Assembly (NCBI RefSeq): GCF_000760515.2
Contig: NW_013546445.1
Location: 1 to 40,100 of the forward strand
Origin: Mitosporidium daphniae
Lineage: Eukaryota; Microsporidia
Length of the DNA: 40,100 bases
Direction of reading: 5' to 3'
Shown: one piece after another, positions 34,223 to 39,699 of the stretch
Numbering within the stretch: position 1 is the first letter of the stretch
How the letters are laid out: each line of letters starts with the position of its first letter
Program-made: the position numbers and the translations under genes
Notes under the pieces: generated by a model
Told to the model about the DNA's origin: nothing
Database searches by the model: none
What the model saw: only the letters and a program-made list of their open reading frames with translations

Positions 34223-34727
34223 TTATTTAGAGTTTGAATATGTAAATAAAACTATCGCCATTATAAGCCCGTAAAGACCCAAAATCTCGGCAAAAATAAG
34301 CAAAAAGACGAACATGATAAAGAGTTTTGGATTGTTAACAAATGCATATGCGCCGATGTTTCCGATATCTCCGATTACATAGCCTGCAGAAAGAGACCCA
34401 ATGCCAACACAAAGACCTGCCGCGAAATGGAGGGAGGCGCTGTAGAATTCATACGTGCCATCTGAAGATATGCTTCCATTTATAAGAACGCCAATTACAA
34501 GGCCATAGATTCCTAAAATGCTGGCCATGATGACCGGCATTAGGGCTTTCATCATTTTATCTGGGTTTTGCGCGCAAGAAGAAACAATACCGACACCAGA
34601 TTTGCAAATACCATAGCATGCCCCCAAAGCTAGAAATAAGCCAATGCCGAATACCTGAAAGGACCATGGCTATTGAGATACCGGCCAGCCCAAAAAAGGG
34701 GGAAACCCAAAGCCAAACATTTGTCAT
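34223..34727 (-). CDS. VMA3: V-type ATPase proteolipid subunit c
   Basis: Two exons, 34727-34655 and 34629-34223, with a 25-nt intron; 159 residues, the standard size. Four transmembrane helices: SPFFGLAGISIAMVLSALGA then YGICKSGVGI (helix 1, recreated by splicing), MKALMPVIMASILGIYGLVI, LHFAAGLCVGIGSLSAGYVI, and MFVFLLIFAEILGLYGLIMA, where the glutamate of IFAEILGLYGLI is the proton-carrying residue. The ring of c subunits translocates protons into vacuoles and endosomes. Sequence fits c (Vma3) or c' (Vma11); the FFG-x-x-G-x-x-x-AM-V-x-SALGA start slightly favours c. Confidence 0.93.
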
Positions 34728-34807
34728 TAAATTAATTTAGAATTTTATTCCATTCAAATGGGTCCAAATTTTTACATTTTATTGATTAAAATTTGGCCTT
34801 TTAAGAA
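34728..34807. promoter_or_regulatory. 80-bp divergent promoter region (VMA3 / kinesin-like)
   Basis: 80 bp between the VMA3 and kinesin-like start codons. TAAATTAATTTAGAATTTTA lies next to VMA3 and GATTAAAATTTGG near the other gene. Confidence 0.35.
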
Positions 34808-37798
34808 ATGATTATATCTCACTGCAATACCGCTGCTCGGCTGTTGTCTATCAATGCAGAGAGCCACGCAAGCTCAGCTTTGCATGCCTTTAGATCTTTT
34901 TTAGAGGTTTCTGAGGGGGATAAACTTGTATTTTACCACGAACATCAAAAGACCACGGGTAACCCCTAATCATCTAACGTTTAGCGGATCAAGCCCTAAA
35001 ATTGTAATACCCGTCGCTTATGCGTAGATCGTTCAAATTCGATGCTTGTGTTCATGAGAATCATAGCAGCTACAATTCGATTTCCGATTTTTGCGAGCAT
35101 ATTGGAATCCCAGCATTAGTTGAATGTCTTTTGCAGGGTATGCAGTACTTCGTCTCTCATATAAAGGGTACAACGTTGCACTGCTCTCGATGGCATTTGG
35201 CGATTCCAAAGAAATCGTCAAGTCCAGGTGCTGTAATGAAATTGGCTTATCGTAGAATGTCGTTGATTGTCGAGGCACTGCAAATATTGCGCCAAGTTTT
35301 ACAAGGTGTCAGGGCAGATTTGTCGTTTGGGTATTTCCTCGCTTTTTTGATGGTAGATTTGTTTCCATCGTGTCAAACAATTATCTTGTTGATGTTTCTT
35401 GTGCCGAAAAGCTGTCGCTTTCAGATATTGTACATAGGGATGACTTGTCGATTTCCTCTGCATGTCTCGATGAGATGTTTGACCACATTTTCAAACATCA
35501 AGACTCGATGCTTTCATCAATAATTTGGATCAACGCTACGTTCAAATCTAACGATGGAAAGTGTCTTTCACCGACCTTCTTTTTGTCTGATTTGGGGGAC
35601 TATTGCGGCTCGGTTTTGTCGGATTCACAATCTCATTTTTCTCACATCCGTAAATTGGCGTTATGATTTTTAGGGAAAATCGCCAATATTTTAGATAATC
35701 CCACCTCGTGCCTAGAGGTGCCATATTCGAAGCACATTGTTACAGAGTTTCTAAAGGAGGCATTTGGAGGCCATTGCCAAACGTGCATCGTTGCTCATCT
35801 GCAGAACGACAATTCTTCCATTGAGGATAAAAGCACGTTTTTAGACGGACTTGGGCTTCTTGAAATGGTCAGGAGCATTCGGACTTTTCCAATCCATATG
35901 GAGGTTTCGCCCTTTGATGTTGATGACCAGCAAAAAAAACTTTTGCAATTGAAGTCAGAATATGAGGTTTTTCTGCACAATAATCCTAGTTGCTTTATGA
36001 AGAAACAAATACAAATATGGGTCAAATGAAGATGCTTCTTGCAAGCTGTTACAAGCAAAATGAAATTTCGATTGCCCTTCTGGAAAAGGTAGGTGATGAT
36101 TGTGATGTTTATTCGCAGAAAGCAAGCTCTGCACTGATTTCAAAGGACTTGAATGGCATTTTAGAGGCCACCATTGATGTCAATAGGATCGGATATGCAA
36201 TTGAAAGGCAAGACAAGGAGTTTGAGACCCATGCAGCGTACGTTAAATATTTTGATGCATTTCAAAAGATTTTGACCCAATCGGTACAAAATTTTCAGCA
36301 ATCGTGTGCCATGCAGCTGCAAAGCGAGACCAATGTCAAGTTGAAGGATCGCATTTGCACCATTCAGTCTGAAAAGCAAAAACAGATCTCCGATCTTGAG
36401 TCTCTAGCAACGAGAAAGGCAGAAGAATCTTGTACATTAAGATCCGAAATACTGCAACTTAAGGATGAGATAAAAACATTAACAGCCTCCTTCAACGGCC
36501 AGCTTGCGCGGCTAAAAGAAGAGCATGGAAGGGAGCTGGAATCCTCTGCCTCTGCTCTTAAAGTCCAGCTTTTAGAGCGGGAAAAGCTCTCGACGGAGAG
36601 TTTGATCGCAAACTACTTTTCTAGAGAAAAAGAATTGAGCTCCAAATATGAAAAGACTGTTGAGAATCTTTCATGCCAATTATCTCTCGTTTGTACGTCC
36701 AAGGATGAAGCTACCAACAAATACGAGGCAATCGAAAAATCACTTCGAGATTACGAGATCAAAAACGTAAAATTGGAGGCAGAGATTGAAAAGCTAAAAT
36801 CCGAAAATCAGCGTTTGCTCCAGGCATCTTTGCAGGTAAAAGAAACGATCCCCAACCTCAAAAAAGGTTGTCTTCAACAAGAACCATCAAAAATACCTGA
36901 ACTGCACCAATCTCGGCCTTTAGAACACTTGGTTGGGCAATCGCATGAAGCTCAAGATAAAGATACCTCTACGCATCTGAAAAGACCGCCACAATTAATA
37001 TTTTCTTCATCAGAAGAAGAGGAAGACCCTGATAAGGTCGCCTTATTTGCACAAAACAAAAGTCCTCAAATTAGAAAGGGTCACAAGGTTTCCAGATGCC
37101 GCTTATACTCGCCAAAGAAGACCATACAGAGGCAAAGGAAAAGTGTAAAAATTGCATCTCCAAATGAAACCGACCCCACACCCCCAAGAGTTTCCATACC
37201 AGCTCAACATATTCTGGGGCCTCCTGATTCCAATATCCAAAAGAAGCAACAGAATTCTCCAACGAAAAAGCATAAAAATTCTGGCCAGGATACAGATCAA
37301 AAAATGGAACAAACAAACGAACAGGCTGGCGAAGCACGGGGCCAAACAAACAAACAGGCTGGCGAAGCACGGGGCCAAACAAAGGTCCAATCCAAATTAC
37401 CCATCCCAGATCCTCTGGATGTTCCTTTGAAGAATACTAGCATCGCTGATAAAAGAAAAGCTCAACGGGCTGCCACGAACCCCACTTCTATCAGTTCAAC
37501 TAACGAACCGTGTTCTTCCCTATTGAAAAAGTCAACCTTCAGGCCGTTGGGACCCAAATTGGCATCTTCAATCCTATCTGAAGAGAATAGTTCATTTTTG
37601 TCAAACCTTTCCCTGTCTTCAGCTAGTTCGGAAGACTCCTTCTCGTTCAGTCGGCAAAAGCATCCGGCTGCTCTTTCAATTGCCCCAAAGGTTCGTTCCA
37701 TTTGCTTAACGCTTTAGTCTTCAATTTTGCGAACAGACCCAAGCTCCATCAGCGATGCAATCAAATCTGCATTCGCCATCCGCCAGCCCAAGTTATAA
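34808..37798 (+). CDS. kinesin-like protein with a degenerate (ATPase-dead) motor domain
   Basis: Nine exons: 34808-34958, 34985-35003 (19 nt), 35028-35137, 35167-35227, 35256-35330, 35357-35649, 35674-35966, 35990-37690 and 37718-37798; introns 26, 24, 29, 28, 26, 24, 23 and 27 nt; 927 residues (909 if the last intron is kept and the stop at 37717 is used). The N-terminal 330 residues follow the kinesin motor: LSFKFDACVHENHSSYNSIS (F-x-F-D-x-V-F), ALVECLLQGYNVALL (V-L-x-GYN), LSPTFFLSDLGDYCGS (switch II place), and VPYSKHIVTEFLKEAFGGHC then QTCIVAHLQND (VPYRDSKLT-x-LL-x-x-x-LGGN-x-x-T-x-x-IA). But the P-loop G-x-x-x-x-GK-S/T, SSRSH and DLAGSE are all lost. About 300 coiled-coil residues and a basic, Pro/Ser-rich tail follow. 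Confidence 0.78.
37310..37375 (+). repeat. two 33-bp in-frame tandem repeats in the kinesin-like tail
   Basis: Two almost identical 33-bp units encode QTNEQAGEARG and QTNKQAGEARG; a third begins QTK. They differ by one base in the first half. The repeat extends a disordered, hydrophilic tail. Confidence 0.88.
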
Positions 37799-37873: not shown

Positions 37874-38281
37874 ATGTTAATTCAGGACAGGGCAAACCAA
37901 TCCATCAACATCAATGAAAGCGACAACGACAGCACGGTGCTCACCATGCTCAATTTGAATAGACTGTCAAATTGCACTATCGAGATTTCCCTGCAAACTA
38001 CGCCTCTTTGTATTTGTGTGGATGCAATGACGAAATGCAGGGTAATATTTAAACATCCCGTTCTTCTTAATCAATTTCGAATACATAGCTGCTCGGATTC
38101 GGTCTTTGAGATAAATTCAGATAAAGCTGGATCAATCATATTGGAGAACTGCAATCGCTTGAGGTTTTATTCACACCATGCCGAAAAAATATCCATTTTT
38201 GATTTTTCAGATCCACTTGGTTTGTGCAGAAATTACGAATTATTTGGCTTTGCCAATTTATTTTTGGAAAATAAAATTTAG
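37874..38281 (+). CDS. TBCC/RP2-type C-CAP domain protein
   Basis: 135 residues from ATG 37874. The beta-helix pattern LNLNRLSNCTIEIS, PLCICVDAMTKCRVIFKHPV, LLNQFRIHSCSDSVFEI and SIILENCNRLRFYS follows the C-terminal domain of tubulin cofactor C and RP2 (L-x-x-C-x-x-x, Q-x-R-x-H, P-IIE-x-C-x-x-x-x-F). The Q-F-R-I-H arginine corresponds to the arginine finger by which TBCC and RP2 activate ARL2/ARL3. The N-terminal tubulin-binding helical domain of TBCC is absent. The start is uncertain: TTAATTCAG just before GACAGG could be a 3' splice site linking to an ATG at 37817. AATAAA lies in the last codons (Asn-Lys-Ile-stop). Confidence 0.68.
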   Translation: MLIQDRANQSININESDNDSTVLTMLNLNRLSNCTIEISLQTTPLCICVDAMTKCRVIFKHPVLLNQFRIHSCSDSVFEINSDKAGSIILENCNRLRFYSHHAEKISIFDFSDPLGLCRNYELFGFANLFLENKI

Positions 38282-38319
38282 CTATTTAATTCACAGACTC
38301 GGCATTTCGCGAATCAGAG

Positions 38320-39615
38320 ATGAGTATTTTGCATTTTATTTTTTCAAATACAATGGTCTCACCTCTTTCAGTTTCGCCGGATACCCCAACATATATAGCG
38401 TTTATCTTGAACTTTACCATCGGGTTTTGCAATTACATTCGATTTTCTGCAGTCAATCTGATTGGCAGTGAGCTAGAGAATATATCTGACTGGCTCCTTC
38501 GGATCTTCCAATTGACCGATAATTCGCCTCAATATGTCATAAATGTATGCCAGGTGTTCTATCTTTTGTGTGCGCTGGTAAAGTGTGTTCAAAATTCTTG
38601 GTCAAACCACAAGTCTACCCTCGACTCTCTGGAGAACTCTAGGCATCACGGAATATCAGCCATCGTTCCAAGAGTATTAAAAAATCATCAAGCTCAAAAG
38701 AAGCCGTTTACGCCTTACGATAAACTCGTTCATACTTTAAGGCTAGTTTTTGGAATTGCTTTTGCACTCGCATTACAAACCGGCATTCCTTCTGTGATCC
38801 TCGAAGCATACTCTGCGAACCCGATCGATGCCTTTGCAGACGAGGATTTGTACTTTGAAAGGTTTTTCTCGATCTCTAAATATTCGGCATTCTTGCTAGC
38901 CAACACGGCAAGCTCTATTTTTTGGCTTTGGGCATCGTGTTTATATGTATGTCCGGATGTTCCGTTTAAAATTGTGGTTGTCCCCGTTGTTTATATGATT
39001 AAGGTCATCTTATTCTTTGTCGTTAGAAGGATATTCCGCAATTGTTGGAACCCAGATGCCTCCAATGTGGGAAGTTATGTCCAGCTCTACTTGTCTCCAT
39101 ATACAGCTTACCCCTGCATTTTGTTCTCTTTTGGAATGCTGGTGTTGATTGCCGGTGTGATTGGCACTCCAGATCCTGCTATAACGGGCCGAATCAAGAT
39201 CCCTTCTATTTTTCTATTTATTGTTTTGTCGAGCCTTAGCGGGATATTAATTTCCAACATCAACTTCCTGCCTAAAATGCTTTTCGAACTTTTAAGATCC
39301 GATATTTCAAGCTCAGGTTCGTATGTGCTTGCCTTGCATTTCTTTCCGTTTAATTACAACGGAAACCTGTCATCATTCGCATTTTGCATGCTTACTTTCC
39401 TAATGTTCATGGAAACCGGTGCTCGCAGTGCCTCTTCGTCTTTCAAAACCCCTGTAAACTCGTGGGGTGAGGCTTTTCAAGAAATTTACAAGTATCTGAT
39501 GTGCGTCTCTTCTGTCATTTCCAGTGTGGAACGCTATCCTATCTCCGTGATTGCAGCTGCATTTTACCTGATTAAGCCCTTTAAAATTACGCTCCCATCG
39601 GTTAATAGCGAGTAA
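38320..39615 (+). CDS. orphan polytopic membrane protein, 431 aa
   Basis: Not recognised. Roughly eight hydrophobic segments: FILNFTIGFCNYIRF, VINVCQVFYLLCALV, LVFGIAFALALQTGIPSVIL, SAFLLANTASSIFWLWASCL, FKIVVVPVVYMIKVILFFVV, ILFSFGMLVLIAGVIG, IFLFIVLSSLSGILIS and FAFCMLTFLMFMETG. A soluble loop of about 60 residues separates segments 2 and 3. There is no clear transporter, glycosyltransferase or GPCR signature. It starts 38 bp after the stop of the TBCC-like gene on the same strand and probably has its own promoter. It may be lineage-specific. Confidence 0.75.
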   Translation: MSILHFIFSNTMVSPLSVSPDTPTYIAFILNFTIGFCNYIRFSAVNLIGSELENISDWLLRIFQLTDNSPQYVINVCQVFYLLCALVKCVQNSWSNHKSTLDSLENSRHHGISAIVPRVLKNHQAQKKPFTPYDKLVHTLRLVFGIAFALALQTGIPSVILEAYSANPIDAFADEDLYFERFFSISKYSAFLLANTASSIFWLWASCLYVCPDVPFKIVVVPVVYMIKVILFFVVRRIFRNCWNPDASNVGSYVQLYLSPYTAYPCILFSFGMLVLIAGVIGTPDPAITGRIKIPSIFLFIVLSSLSGILISNINFLPKMLFELLRSDISSSGSYVLALHFFPFNYNGNLSSFAFCMLTFLMFMETGARSASSSFKTPVNSWGEAFQEIYKYLMCVSSVISSVERYPISVIAAAFYLIKPFKITLPSVNSE

Positions 39616-39676: not shown

Positions 39677-39699
39677 AAACCCTAACTCTAACCCTAACC
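39677..39699. repeat. short telomere-like tract (CCCTAA)
   Basis: AAACCCTAACTCTAACCCTAACC holds two full CCCTAAC units and one imperfect CTCTAAC unit. It lies in the 205-bp space between two convergent genes. The unit equals the common fungal and animal telomere repeat TTAGGG. This is an internal position, so it is either a chance match, a relic of a repaired break, or a binding site for a telomere-repeat-type factor. Confidence 0.55.

What the first reader, a model, noticed from the sequence alone, without database searches (positions are those of the whole stretch)
34808..36000. Kinesin-like protein that has lost all three nucleotide-binding motifs
After splicing, residues 1-330 retain the scaffold of a kinesin motor (F-x-F-D, V-L-x-GYN, VPY-x-K-x-x-x-x-x-L-x-x-x-FGG, a T-x-x-IA strand, then a terminal helix), but GYNVALLSMAFGDSKE replaces the GQT-x-x-GKT P-loop, HQDSMLSSIIW replaces N-x-x-SSRSH and DLGDYCGS replaces DLAGSE. 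No frame in 35130-35330 contains a GKT/GKS P-loop. The only analogues known to me are the Vik1/Cik1 motor-homology domains of yeast kinesin-14 partners. Here the pseudo-motor is N-terminal, followed by a coiled coil and a long basic tail. It may be a non-catalytic partner of an active kinesin, or a microtubule tether.
Basis: partly seen in the sequence, partly recalled or inferred. Interest (0 to 1): 0.82.

Follow-up and report, generated by a model that had tools for sequence, protein, structure and literature searches.

The report
Motor-dead kinesin relative in Mitosporidium
A parasite of water fleas appears to carry a gene for a kinesin, normally a protein that walks along the cell's microtubules, whose head has lost the parts needed to use ATP and probably the part that grips the track, so it most likely works as a scaffold rather than a motor.

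Summary
The gene (34808-37798, 8 short introns, 927 aa) belongs to Mitosporidium daphniae; its public model, DI09_35p290, is mis-spliced and shows no kinesin domain. The N-terminal ~316 residues are homologous to a kinesin head: two collinear blocks match (28.4 bits against at most 10.4 in 5000 shuffles), and a global profile alignment covers 288 columns at 17% identity. The P-loop, switch I and switch II motifs are absent, and no tested splice pattern restores them (0 of 555 joins; 0 of 197 open paths). Best reading: a dimeric non-catalytic pseudokinesin working as a scaffold or adaptor, as Smy1 and KIF26A do, not a microtubule tether through its head. A Vik1/Cik1-like partner role stays open. 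At least four ordinary kinesins lie in the held 4.66 Mb; word-based searches of 5.8 billion proteins found no relative of this one. Expression, fold and binding are untested; the structure prediction was partial and of low confidence.

The parts
34808..37798 (+). Whole gene, 9 exons, 927 aa (public model DI09_35p290, 807 aa, is mis-spliced)
   Evidence: Spliced open frame; frame-specific codon usage; public model
34808..34958 (+). Exon 1 (aa 1-50): would hold strand beta-1; RLLS stands where kinesins have RxRP
34959..34984 (+). Intron 1, 26 nt
   Evidence: GT-AG
34985..35003 (+). Exon 2
35004..35027 (+). Intron 2, 24 nt
35028..35137 (+). Exon 3: FKFD and VECLLQ, kinesin block 1 (aa 31-101 together with exon 4)
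   Evidence: Block 1, 11.5 bits; hhalign to four native kinesins, residues 56-139 of the 7-intron model, E 5.5e-4, probability 30%
35138..35166 (+). Intron 3, 29 nt; its removal yields GYN at the kinesin position
35167..35227 (+). Exon 4: YNVALLSMAFGDSKEIVKS; AFGDSKE (35193-35213) replaces the GQTxxGKT P-loop
35228..35255 (+). Intron 4, 28 nt
35256..35330 (+). Exon 5: RMSLIVEALQILRQVLQGVRADLSFG, place of kinesin helix 2
35331..35356 (+). Intron 5, 26 nt, closely like a 23-nt intron of the native kinesin-14 gene
35357..35649 (+). Exon 6: FVSIVSNN (place of EIYNE), HQDSMLSSIIW at 35496-35528 (switch I gone), DLGDYCGS at 35589-35612 (replaces DLAGSE)
35650..35673 (+). Intron 6, 24 nt
35674..35966 (+). 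Exon 7: kinesin block 2; EVPYSKHIVTEFLKEAFGG at 35715-35771 (loop 12/helix 5 without its basic residues), TCIVA strand, last part of the head, start of stalk
   Evidence: Pfam Kinesin E 3.6e-6; 14.3 bits; charges
35967..35989 (+). Intron 7, 23 nt
35990..36907 (+). Stalk (exon 8, following the end of exon 7; aa to about 640): no proline from residue 320 to 621; heptad-like windows starting at 450-482, 552-556, 592-596
   Evidence: the same simple score also flags two windows in the head (102-111, 210-218), so it is only suggestive
36908..37798 (+). Tail (aa 641-927): net charge +16, 5 SP/TP sites, ends with the stop codon; contains intron 8
37691..37717 (+). Intron 8, 27 nt

Best explanation
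The gene encodes a non-catalytic pseudokinesin. An ancestral N-terminal-motor kinesin of unresolved family lost nucleotide binding and, very probably, the usual microtubule grip, while parts of the head's conserved core, the stalk and the basic tail were kept. SHOWN: homology of the head to kinesin, loss of the P-loop, switch I, switch II and RxRP motifs, loss of the basic loop-12/helix-5 residues, an acidic head, a long stalk and a basic tail with SP/TP sites, coding-like exons. INFERRED: the stalk dimerises it; the head is used as a protein-binding module; the tail anchors or localises it, perhaps under cell-cycle kinases; it thus works as a scaffold or adaptor in the manner of Smy1 or KIF26A and not as a motor.
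For: Homology: two collinear blocks, 28.4 bits against at most 10.4 in 5000 shuffles; hhalign global alignment of 288 columns, probability 71%, E 4.7e-6, 0 of 150 shuffles reach it; Pfam E 3.6e-6; best PDB sequence match KIF18A, E 7.3e-4. Loss: it keeps 22 of 82 columns conserved in at least 85% of 56 kinesins, and the lost ones include the nucleotide motifs; no tested splice pattern restores them. Not a motor on microtubules: loop-12/helix-5 segment charge -1 against 0 to +3 in the 53 of 56 heads where the motif was found; head charge -15 against -5 to +22 in 56 heads. Not plain decay: 9 of 9 exons open, assigned frame best of three + frames in 9 of 9. Gene-specific: the four other kinesins read in the same assembly keep their motifs, while this one's branch is 7-10 changes per column against a median of 0.31.
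Confidence: 0.6

Rival explanations
1. Non-catalytic partner of an active kinesin: the stalk pairs with one of the organism's active N-terminal-motor kinesins (kinesin-12 or kinesin-4), so that one live and one dead head form a heterodimer, as Kar3 does with Cik1 or Vik1.
For: Head, stalk and tail are laid out as in an N-terminal-motor kinesin; intact candidate partners exist in the same assembly; the Kar3 precedent shows that dead heads can set processivity and speed (passages).
Against: In Kar3/Cik1 the dead head itself holds the microtubule (passages), whereas here the basic loop-12/helix-5 residues are gone and the head is acidic. The Vik1 head lies at the C-terminal end (neck and head are aa 351-647, passage). 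No stalk pairing was or could be tested.
Confidence: 0.22
2. Microtubule tether through a nucleotide-independent head.
For: Parts of the kinesin scaffold are kept; KIF26A's divergent head is reported to bind microtubules without ATP hydrolysis (passage).
Against: Loop 12/helix 5 basics replaced and head net charge -15, outside the range of 56 kinesin heads. The basic tail (+16) is the likelier microtubule-binding part if there is one.
Confidence: 0.08
3. Decaying pseudogene of an ordinary kinesin.
For: Extreme divergence, no relative found, and only a mis-spliced public model.
Against: All 9 exons open over 2781 coding bases with 8 GT-AG introns of 23-29 nt; assigned frame best of three + frames in 9 of 9 exons. 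A gene decayed enough to lose all these motifs would be expected to carry stops and frameshifts.
Confidence: 0.05
4. Assembly or gene-model artefact hiding an active kinesin.
For: Two other kinesin genes of this assembly carry an N, and the C120 gene also an in-frame TAA; the gene model rests on no transcripts.
Against: The lost motifs lie in several separate exons and are replaced by open, coding-like sequence; no tested splice join or path restores them. Independent base errors at every motif are not plausible.
Confidence: 0.03
5. The head is not derived from kinesin; the resemblance is chance.
For: Pfam score under its cut-off; 17% identity; single-sequence fold without confidence.
Against: Two collinear blocks together, and the N-terminal part alone, exceed 5000 shuffles, and the global profile alignment spans 288 columns with 0 of 150 shuffles reaching it.
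Confidence: 0.02

Closest known systems
Smy1 (kinesin-11 in some schemes, kinesin-1 in another), budding yeast
   Same: A fungal kinesin-related protein reported not to bind microtubules and to act through a class V myosin (passages).
   Different: Smy1 passed a published Pfam score threshold of 100 with an older model (passage), while this head scores 26.6 bits with the current model; the two scales are not directly comparable. No Smy1 sequence was compared here. No DIL domain was found in the held assembly (controls silent).
KIF26A, with KIF26B and VAB-8 (kinesin-11), animals
   Same: KIF26A: a divergent kinesin head that cannot hydrolyse ATP, in a signalling protein (passages).
   Different: KIF26A's head is reported to bind microtubules; here the usual contact residues are lost. 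Different lineage; no sequence of this family was compared here.
Vik1/Cik1, kinesin-14 accessory chains of Kar3
   Same: A kinesin-like head lacking the elements to bind and hydrolyse ATP, in a dimer with a motor (passages).
   Different: The Vik1 head is at the C-terminal end (aa 351-647 with neck); this head is N-terminal. No Vik1 or Cik1 chain is named among the 48 PDB sequence matches at E up to 10.
pseudoKinesin-21, an orphan group reported as unique to fungal taxa (J Biol Chem 2016)
   Same: A fungal group named as pseudokinesins (one passage).
   Different: The passage gives no sequence or residue features, so membership could not be tested.
Other Mitosporidium kinesins (C15 kinesin-4, C131 kinesin-12, C107 kinesin-14, C120 kinesin-10-like)
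   Same: Same genome, same style of very short introns, same domain ancestry.
   Different: All four keep a P-loop, SSRSH and DLAGSE.

Membership tests
Kinesin superfamily (PF00225, motor ATPase) | Sequence homology over the motor domain | tested here: met
   28.4 bits against at most 10.4 in 5000 shuffles; hhalign global 288 columns, 0 of 150 shuffles. It misses Pfam's curated cut-off (26.6 of 29.3 bits).
Kinesin superfamily (PF00225, motor ATPase) | P-loop GQTxxGK[TS] | tested here: not met
   AFGDSKE in its place; 0 of 555 joins and 0 of 197 open paths hold GxxxxGK[ST]
Kinesin superfamily (PF00225, motor ATPase) | Switch I NxxSSRSH and switch II DLAGSE | tested here: not met
   HQDSMLSSIIW and DLGDYCGS; 0 of 555 joins and 0 of 197 open paths
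Kinesin superfamily (PF00225, motor ATPase) | Basic microtubule-binding loop 12/helix 5 (YRxSKLTR) | tested here: not met
   YSKHIVTE; segment charge -1 against 0 to +3 in the 53 of 56 kinesin heads where the motif was found
Kinesin superfamily (PF00225, motor ATPase) | Kinesin fold | tested here: inconclusive
   Half-domain model, pLDDT 57.6; the best seven Foldseek hits are kinesins but at E 0.023 or worse; circular use of a kinesin alignment
Smy1 / kinesin-11 | Clusters with kinesin-11 or Smy1 in a tree | not tested
   No row named Smy1 or kinesin-11 was among the 120 listed proteins; this head's branch is too long to place in any family
Smy1 / kinesin-11 | Partner class V myosin present | tested here: inconclusive
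   PF01843 (DIL) 0 matches in the held 4.66 Mb, but all 14 controls were silent too; myosin heads on C142 and C108
Vik1/Cik1 | C-terminal motor homology domain after an N-terminal coiled coil | tested here: not met
   The head is residues 1-316, the stalk follows
Vik1/Cik1 | Heterodimer with Kar3 (kinesin-14) | not testable with these tools
   A kinesin-14 gene is present on C107; binding cannot be tested
pseudoKinesin-21 | Sequence membership of the published clade | not testable with these tools

The most novel reading that the evidence does not exclude
A lineage-specific pseudokinesin in which an N-terminal kinesin head has been completely repurposed: it has lost both nucleotide binding and the microtubule contact and survives only as a protein-binding domain on a coiled-coil scaffold with a phospho-regulated basic tail, in an early branch of the microsporidian lineage with few other kinesins (four read in the held 4.66 Mb).
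Probability: 0.4. Interest if true: 0.6.

Novelty: new variant of a known kind. Interest (0 to 1): 0.45.

Why it matters
Kinesin heads that lost catalysis are few, and each has taught something about what the fold can do without ATP. In this one, by sequence, both the nucleotide motifs and the usual microtubule contact appear to be gone. It lies in a small genome on the branch towards Microsporidia, where only four other kinesins were read in the held part, which makes its retention noteworthy. It is also a clear case of a gene hidden by mis-splicing of 23-29 nt introns: Pfam sees no kinesin domain in the public model.

Tried and rejected
A 7-intron model with a 39-nt intron at 35217-35255 was replaced by the 8-intron model. 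Both give nearly the same profile score (28.0-28.4 bits), and some paths with long introns score a little higher (29.1 for introns of 75 and 72 nt), so the choice rests on intron length, the likeness of intron 5 to a native kinesin-14 intron, and codon usage. Searches run before that change used the 7-intron protein.

Homologue searches gave no relative but itself at E up to 10: full protein, 1 hit among 7991 scored candidates (candidate limit reached), and residues 1-345, 1 among 2339. The method needs shared 5-residue words, so diverged orthologues may be missed. No paralogue was found in the held assembly (5 matches, all this gene).

Family placement was dropped: the head's branch is 7-10 changes per column and its letter make-up is odd. 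In the list I saw no row named as kinesin-1, -8, -11 or -13; many rows are unnamed. Kinesin-family names of the four native genes are mine: kinesin-12 and -14 sit in supported clades with rows named KIF15 and carboxy-terminal kinesin 2, kinesin-4 in a supported clade that holds rows named KIF4 but also ones named KIF3A and Kip1p; kinesin-10 rests on its tail and recalled motifs.

Rows dropped: of 120 proteins listed, 115 had a usable motor and 52 remained after redundancy removal; with 4 native heads this made 56, of which one (P0002) is the same protein as the native kinesin-4. The native kinesin introns were read by eye.

The relaxed pattern GK[ST] gave 17 strings; the 12 printed all come from one site near 35680, in a frame with stops and without the rest of a P-loop. 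Alignment A3 of the public model with kinesins was visibly misaligned and not used. Fold searches list unrelated folds (APOBEC, LasR) at scores like those of kinesins; no Vik1 or Cik1 row was seen there, which excludes nothing. Dynein_heavy and DIL searches were empty, but so were their controls. The heptad score also flags two windows inside the head.

Literature: 'Mitosporidium daphniae' with 'kinesin' in 0 papers; 'pseudokinesin' in 1; in the listings I saw no paper on this gene. Passages only were seen of PMC5076506, PMC3472504, PMC4338441, PMC10585591, PMC2867816, PMC8950801, PMC4839718, PMC12534020, PMC5701793, PMC9330073 and PMC3338639; no whole paper was read. Smy1's 1998 paper is not held.

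Full report
WHAT IS THERE. The window is contig C76 of a 4.66 Mb assembly. The one protein that the collection search returned for this gene at E up to 10 is DI09_35p290 of Mitosporidium daphniae, a parasite of Daphnia (passage). The published genome is 5.64 Mb in 612 scaffolds (passage), so about 83% is held here. The gene runs from the ATG at 34808 to the stop ending at 37798 on the + strand, with nine exons and eight GT-AG introns of 23-29 nt, and encodes 927 residues. Of thirteen introns that I read by eye in the four other kinesin genes of the assembly, twelve are 23-35 nt and one is 84 nt, so the intron style is that of the genome. In 9 of 9 exons the assigned frame has the best codon-usage score of the three + frames; in exon 1 one - frame scores slightly higher (2.1 against 1.5 bits) but has three stops. 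The codon table came from 12 open frames of this window that are not verified genes.

THE PUBLIC MODEL. DI09_35p290 (807 aa) starts at a later ATG, reads the exon that replaces the P-loop in another frame, drops three pieces of the head region and ends early. Pfam finds no kinesin domain in it at E up to 10; in the re-spliced protein it finds one at E 3.6e-6, 26.6 bits, under the curated cut-off of 29.3.

HOMOLOGY TO KINESIN. A profile of 56 kinesin heads matches residues 31-101 and 247-288 in the right order, total 28.4 bits for residues 1-320 against at most 10.4 in 5000 shuffles of the same residues; residues 1-240 alone score 13.1 against at most 8.6. hhalign gives a global alignment over 288 columns at 17% identity, probability 71%, E 4.7e-6, with 0 of 150 shuffles reaching its score, and local alignments that pick out one block each, at 29-30% probability. 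Against PDB sequences the best match is KIF18A, E 7.3e-4, with both blocks aligned (6.1 and 13.8 bits, neither significant alone). The matched stretches within exons 3 and 7 are contiguous in DNA and do not depend on my splicing choices; the GYN tripeptide does depend on intron 3.

WHAT IS LOST. Of 82 columns conserved in at least 85% of the 56 kinesins, 22 are kept. RxRP reads RLLS, the P-loop reads AFGDSKE, switch I is shortened to HQDSMLSSIIW, DLAGSE reads DLGDYC, and EIYNE reads SIVSNN. I asked whether other splicing could bring the motifs back: 555 single-intron joins (15-90 nt, GT or GC donors) over 34700-36100, and 197 open paths with up to two introns (20-75 nt, GT donors) between the fixed introns 3 and 6, gave none of the three motifs. 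A GKS occurs near 35680 in a frame with stops and without the rest of a P-loop.

The segment that in kinesins reads HIPYRDSKLTR, whose basic residues contact the microtubule (recalled for kinesin-1), reads EVPYSKHIVTE: R to S, K to I, R to E. Its charge is -1 against 0 to +3 in the 53 of 56 heads where the motif was found, and the head as a whole has -15 against -5 to +22 in 56 heads. The tail has +16 and five SP/TP sites; the stalk has no proline from residue 320 to 621 and heptad-like windows at three places, by a simple score that also flags two windows in the head. Coiled coil and dimer are therefore inferred, not shown.

SETTING. The held assembly encodes at least four other kinesins, all with intact motifs: kinesin-4 (C15, P0002), kinesin-12 (C131), kinesin-14 (C107) and a kinesin-10-like gene (C120, with an in-frame TAA and an N). 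The search scores only best candidates, so this count is a lower bound. No second copy of the pseudokinesin was found. Myosin heads lie on C142 and C108 and formin FH2 matches on C80 and C104. The next open frame downstream looks like tubulin cofactor C (E 1.9e-4, under its cut-off), and the divergent upstream gene is a V-ATPase-type proteolipid (PF00137). Adjacency alone shows nothing about function.

HOW IT MOST LIKELY WORKS. Shown: a kinesin-derived head without nucleotide-binding motifs and without the usual basic microtubule contact, a long stalk and a basic tail, in a coding-like gene. Inferred: dimerisation by the stalk, protein binding by the head, anchoring by the tail. The nearest working precedents are Smy1, reported not to bind microtubules and to act through a myosin (passages), and KIF26A, whose head is reported to bind microtubules without hydrolysing ATP (passage). 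The Kar3 partners Cik1 and Vik1 show what a dead head can do in a heterodimer (passages) and remain a live rival.

KNOWN OR NEW. Motor-dead kinesins are a known kind, and a fungal orphan group has been named pseudoKinesin-21 (one passage). This protein is best called a new variant: a pseudo-motor at the N-terminus with both nucleotide and microtubule contacts apparently lost, so far seen in one species. Its family of origin is not resolved. The paper searches gave nothing on it that I saw (listings and passages only). Interest is moderate: the sequence case is strong, the function is untested.

Noticed in passing
window 37874-38281, + strand: Open frame just downstream of the gene that resembles tubulin binding cofactor C (PF07986, E 1.9e-4, 21.7 bits, under the 24.8 cut-off).
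   Followed up: partly
window about 37313-37384, + strand: A tandem repeat with a 33-nt period in the tail region encodes QTNxQAGEARG twice.
   Followed up: no
L014 (G000 C120): The kinesin-10-like gene has an in-frame TAA directly before SGSINKSL and an N elsewhere in the head, which may be an assembly error or a damaged gene. Described only.
   Followed up: no
window 39677-39699, + strand: Telomere-like AAACCCTAACTCTAACCCTAACC stretch inside the contig between open frames.
   Followed up: no
window 38290-39615, + strand: A 441-residue open frame, hydrophobic by eye, without any Pfam match at E up to 1 (431 aa tested).
   Followed up: no
P0001 (DI09_35p290): The public gene model is mis-spliced in the head, which hides the kinesin homology; introns of 23-29 nt may cause the same elsewhere in this genome.
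   Followed up: partly
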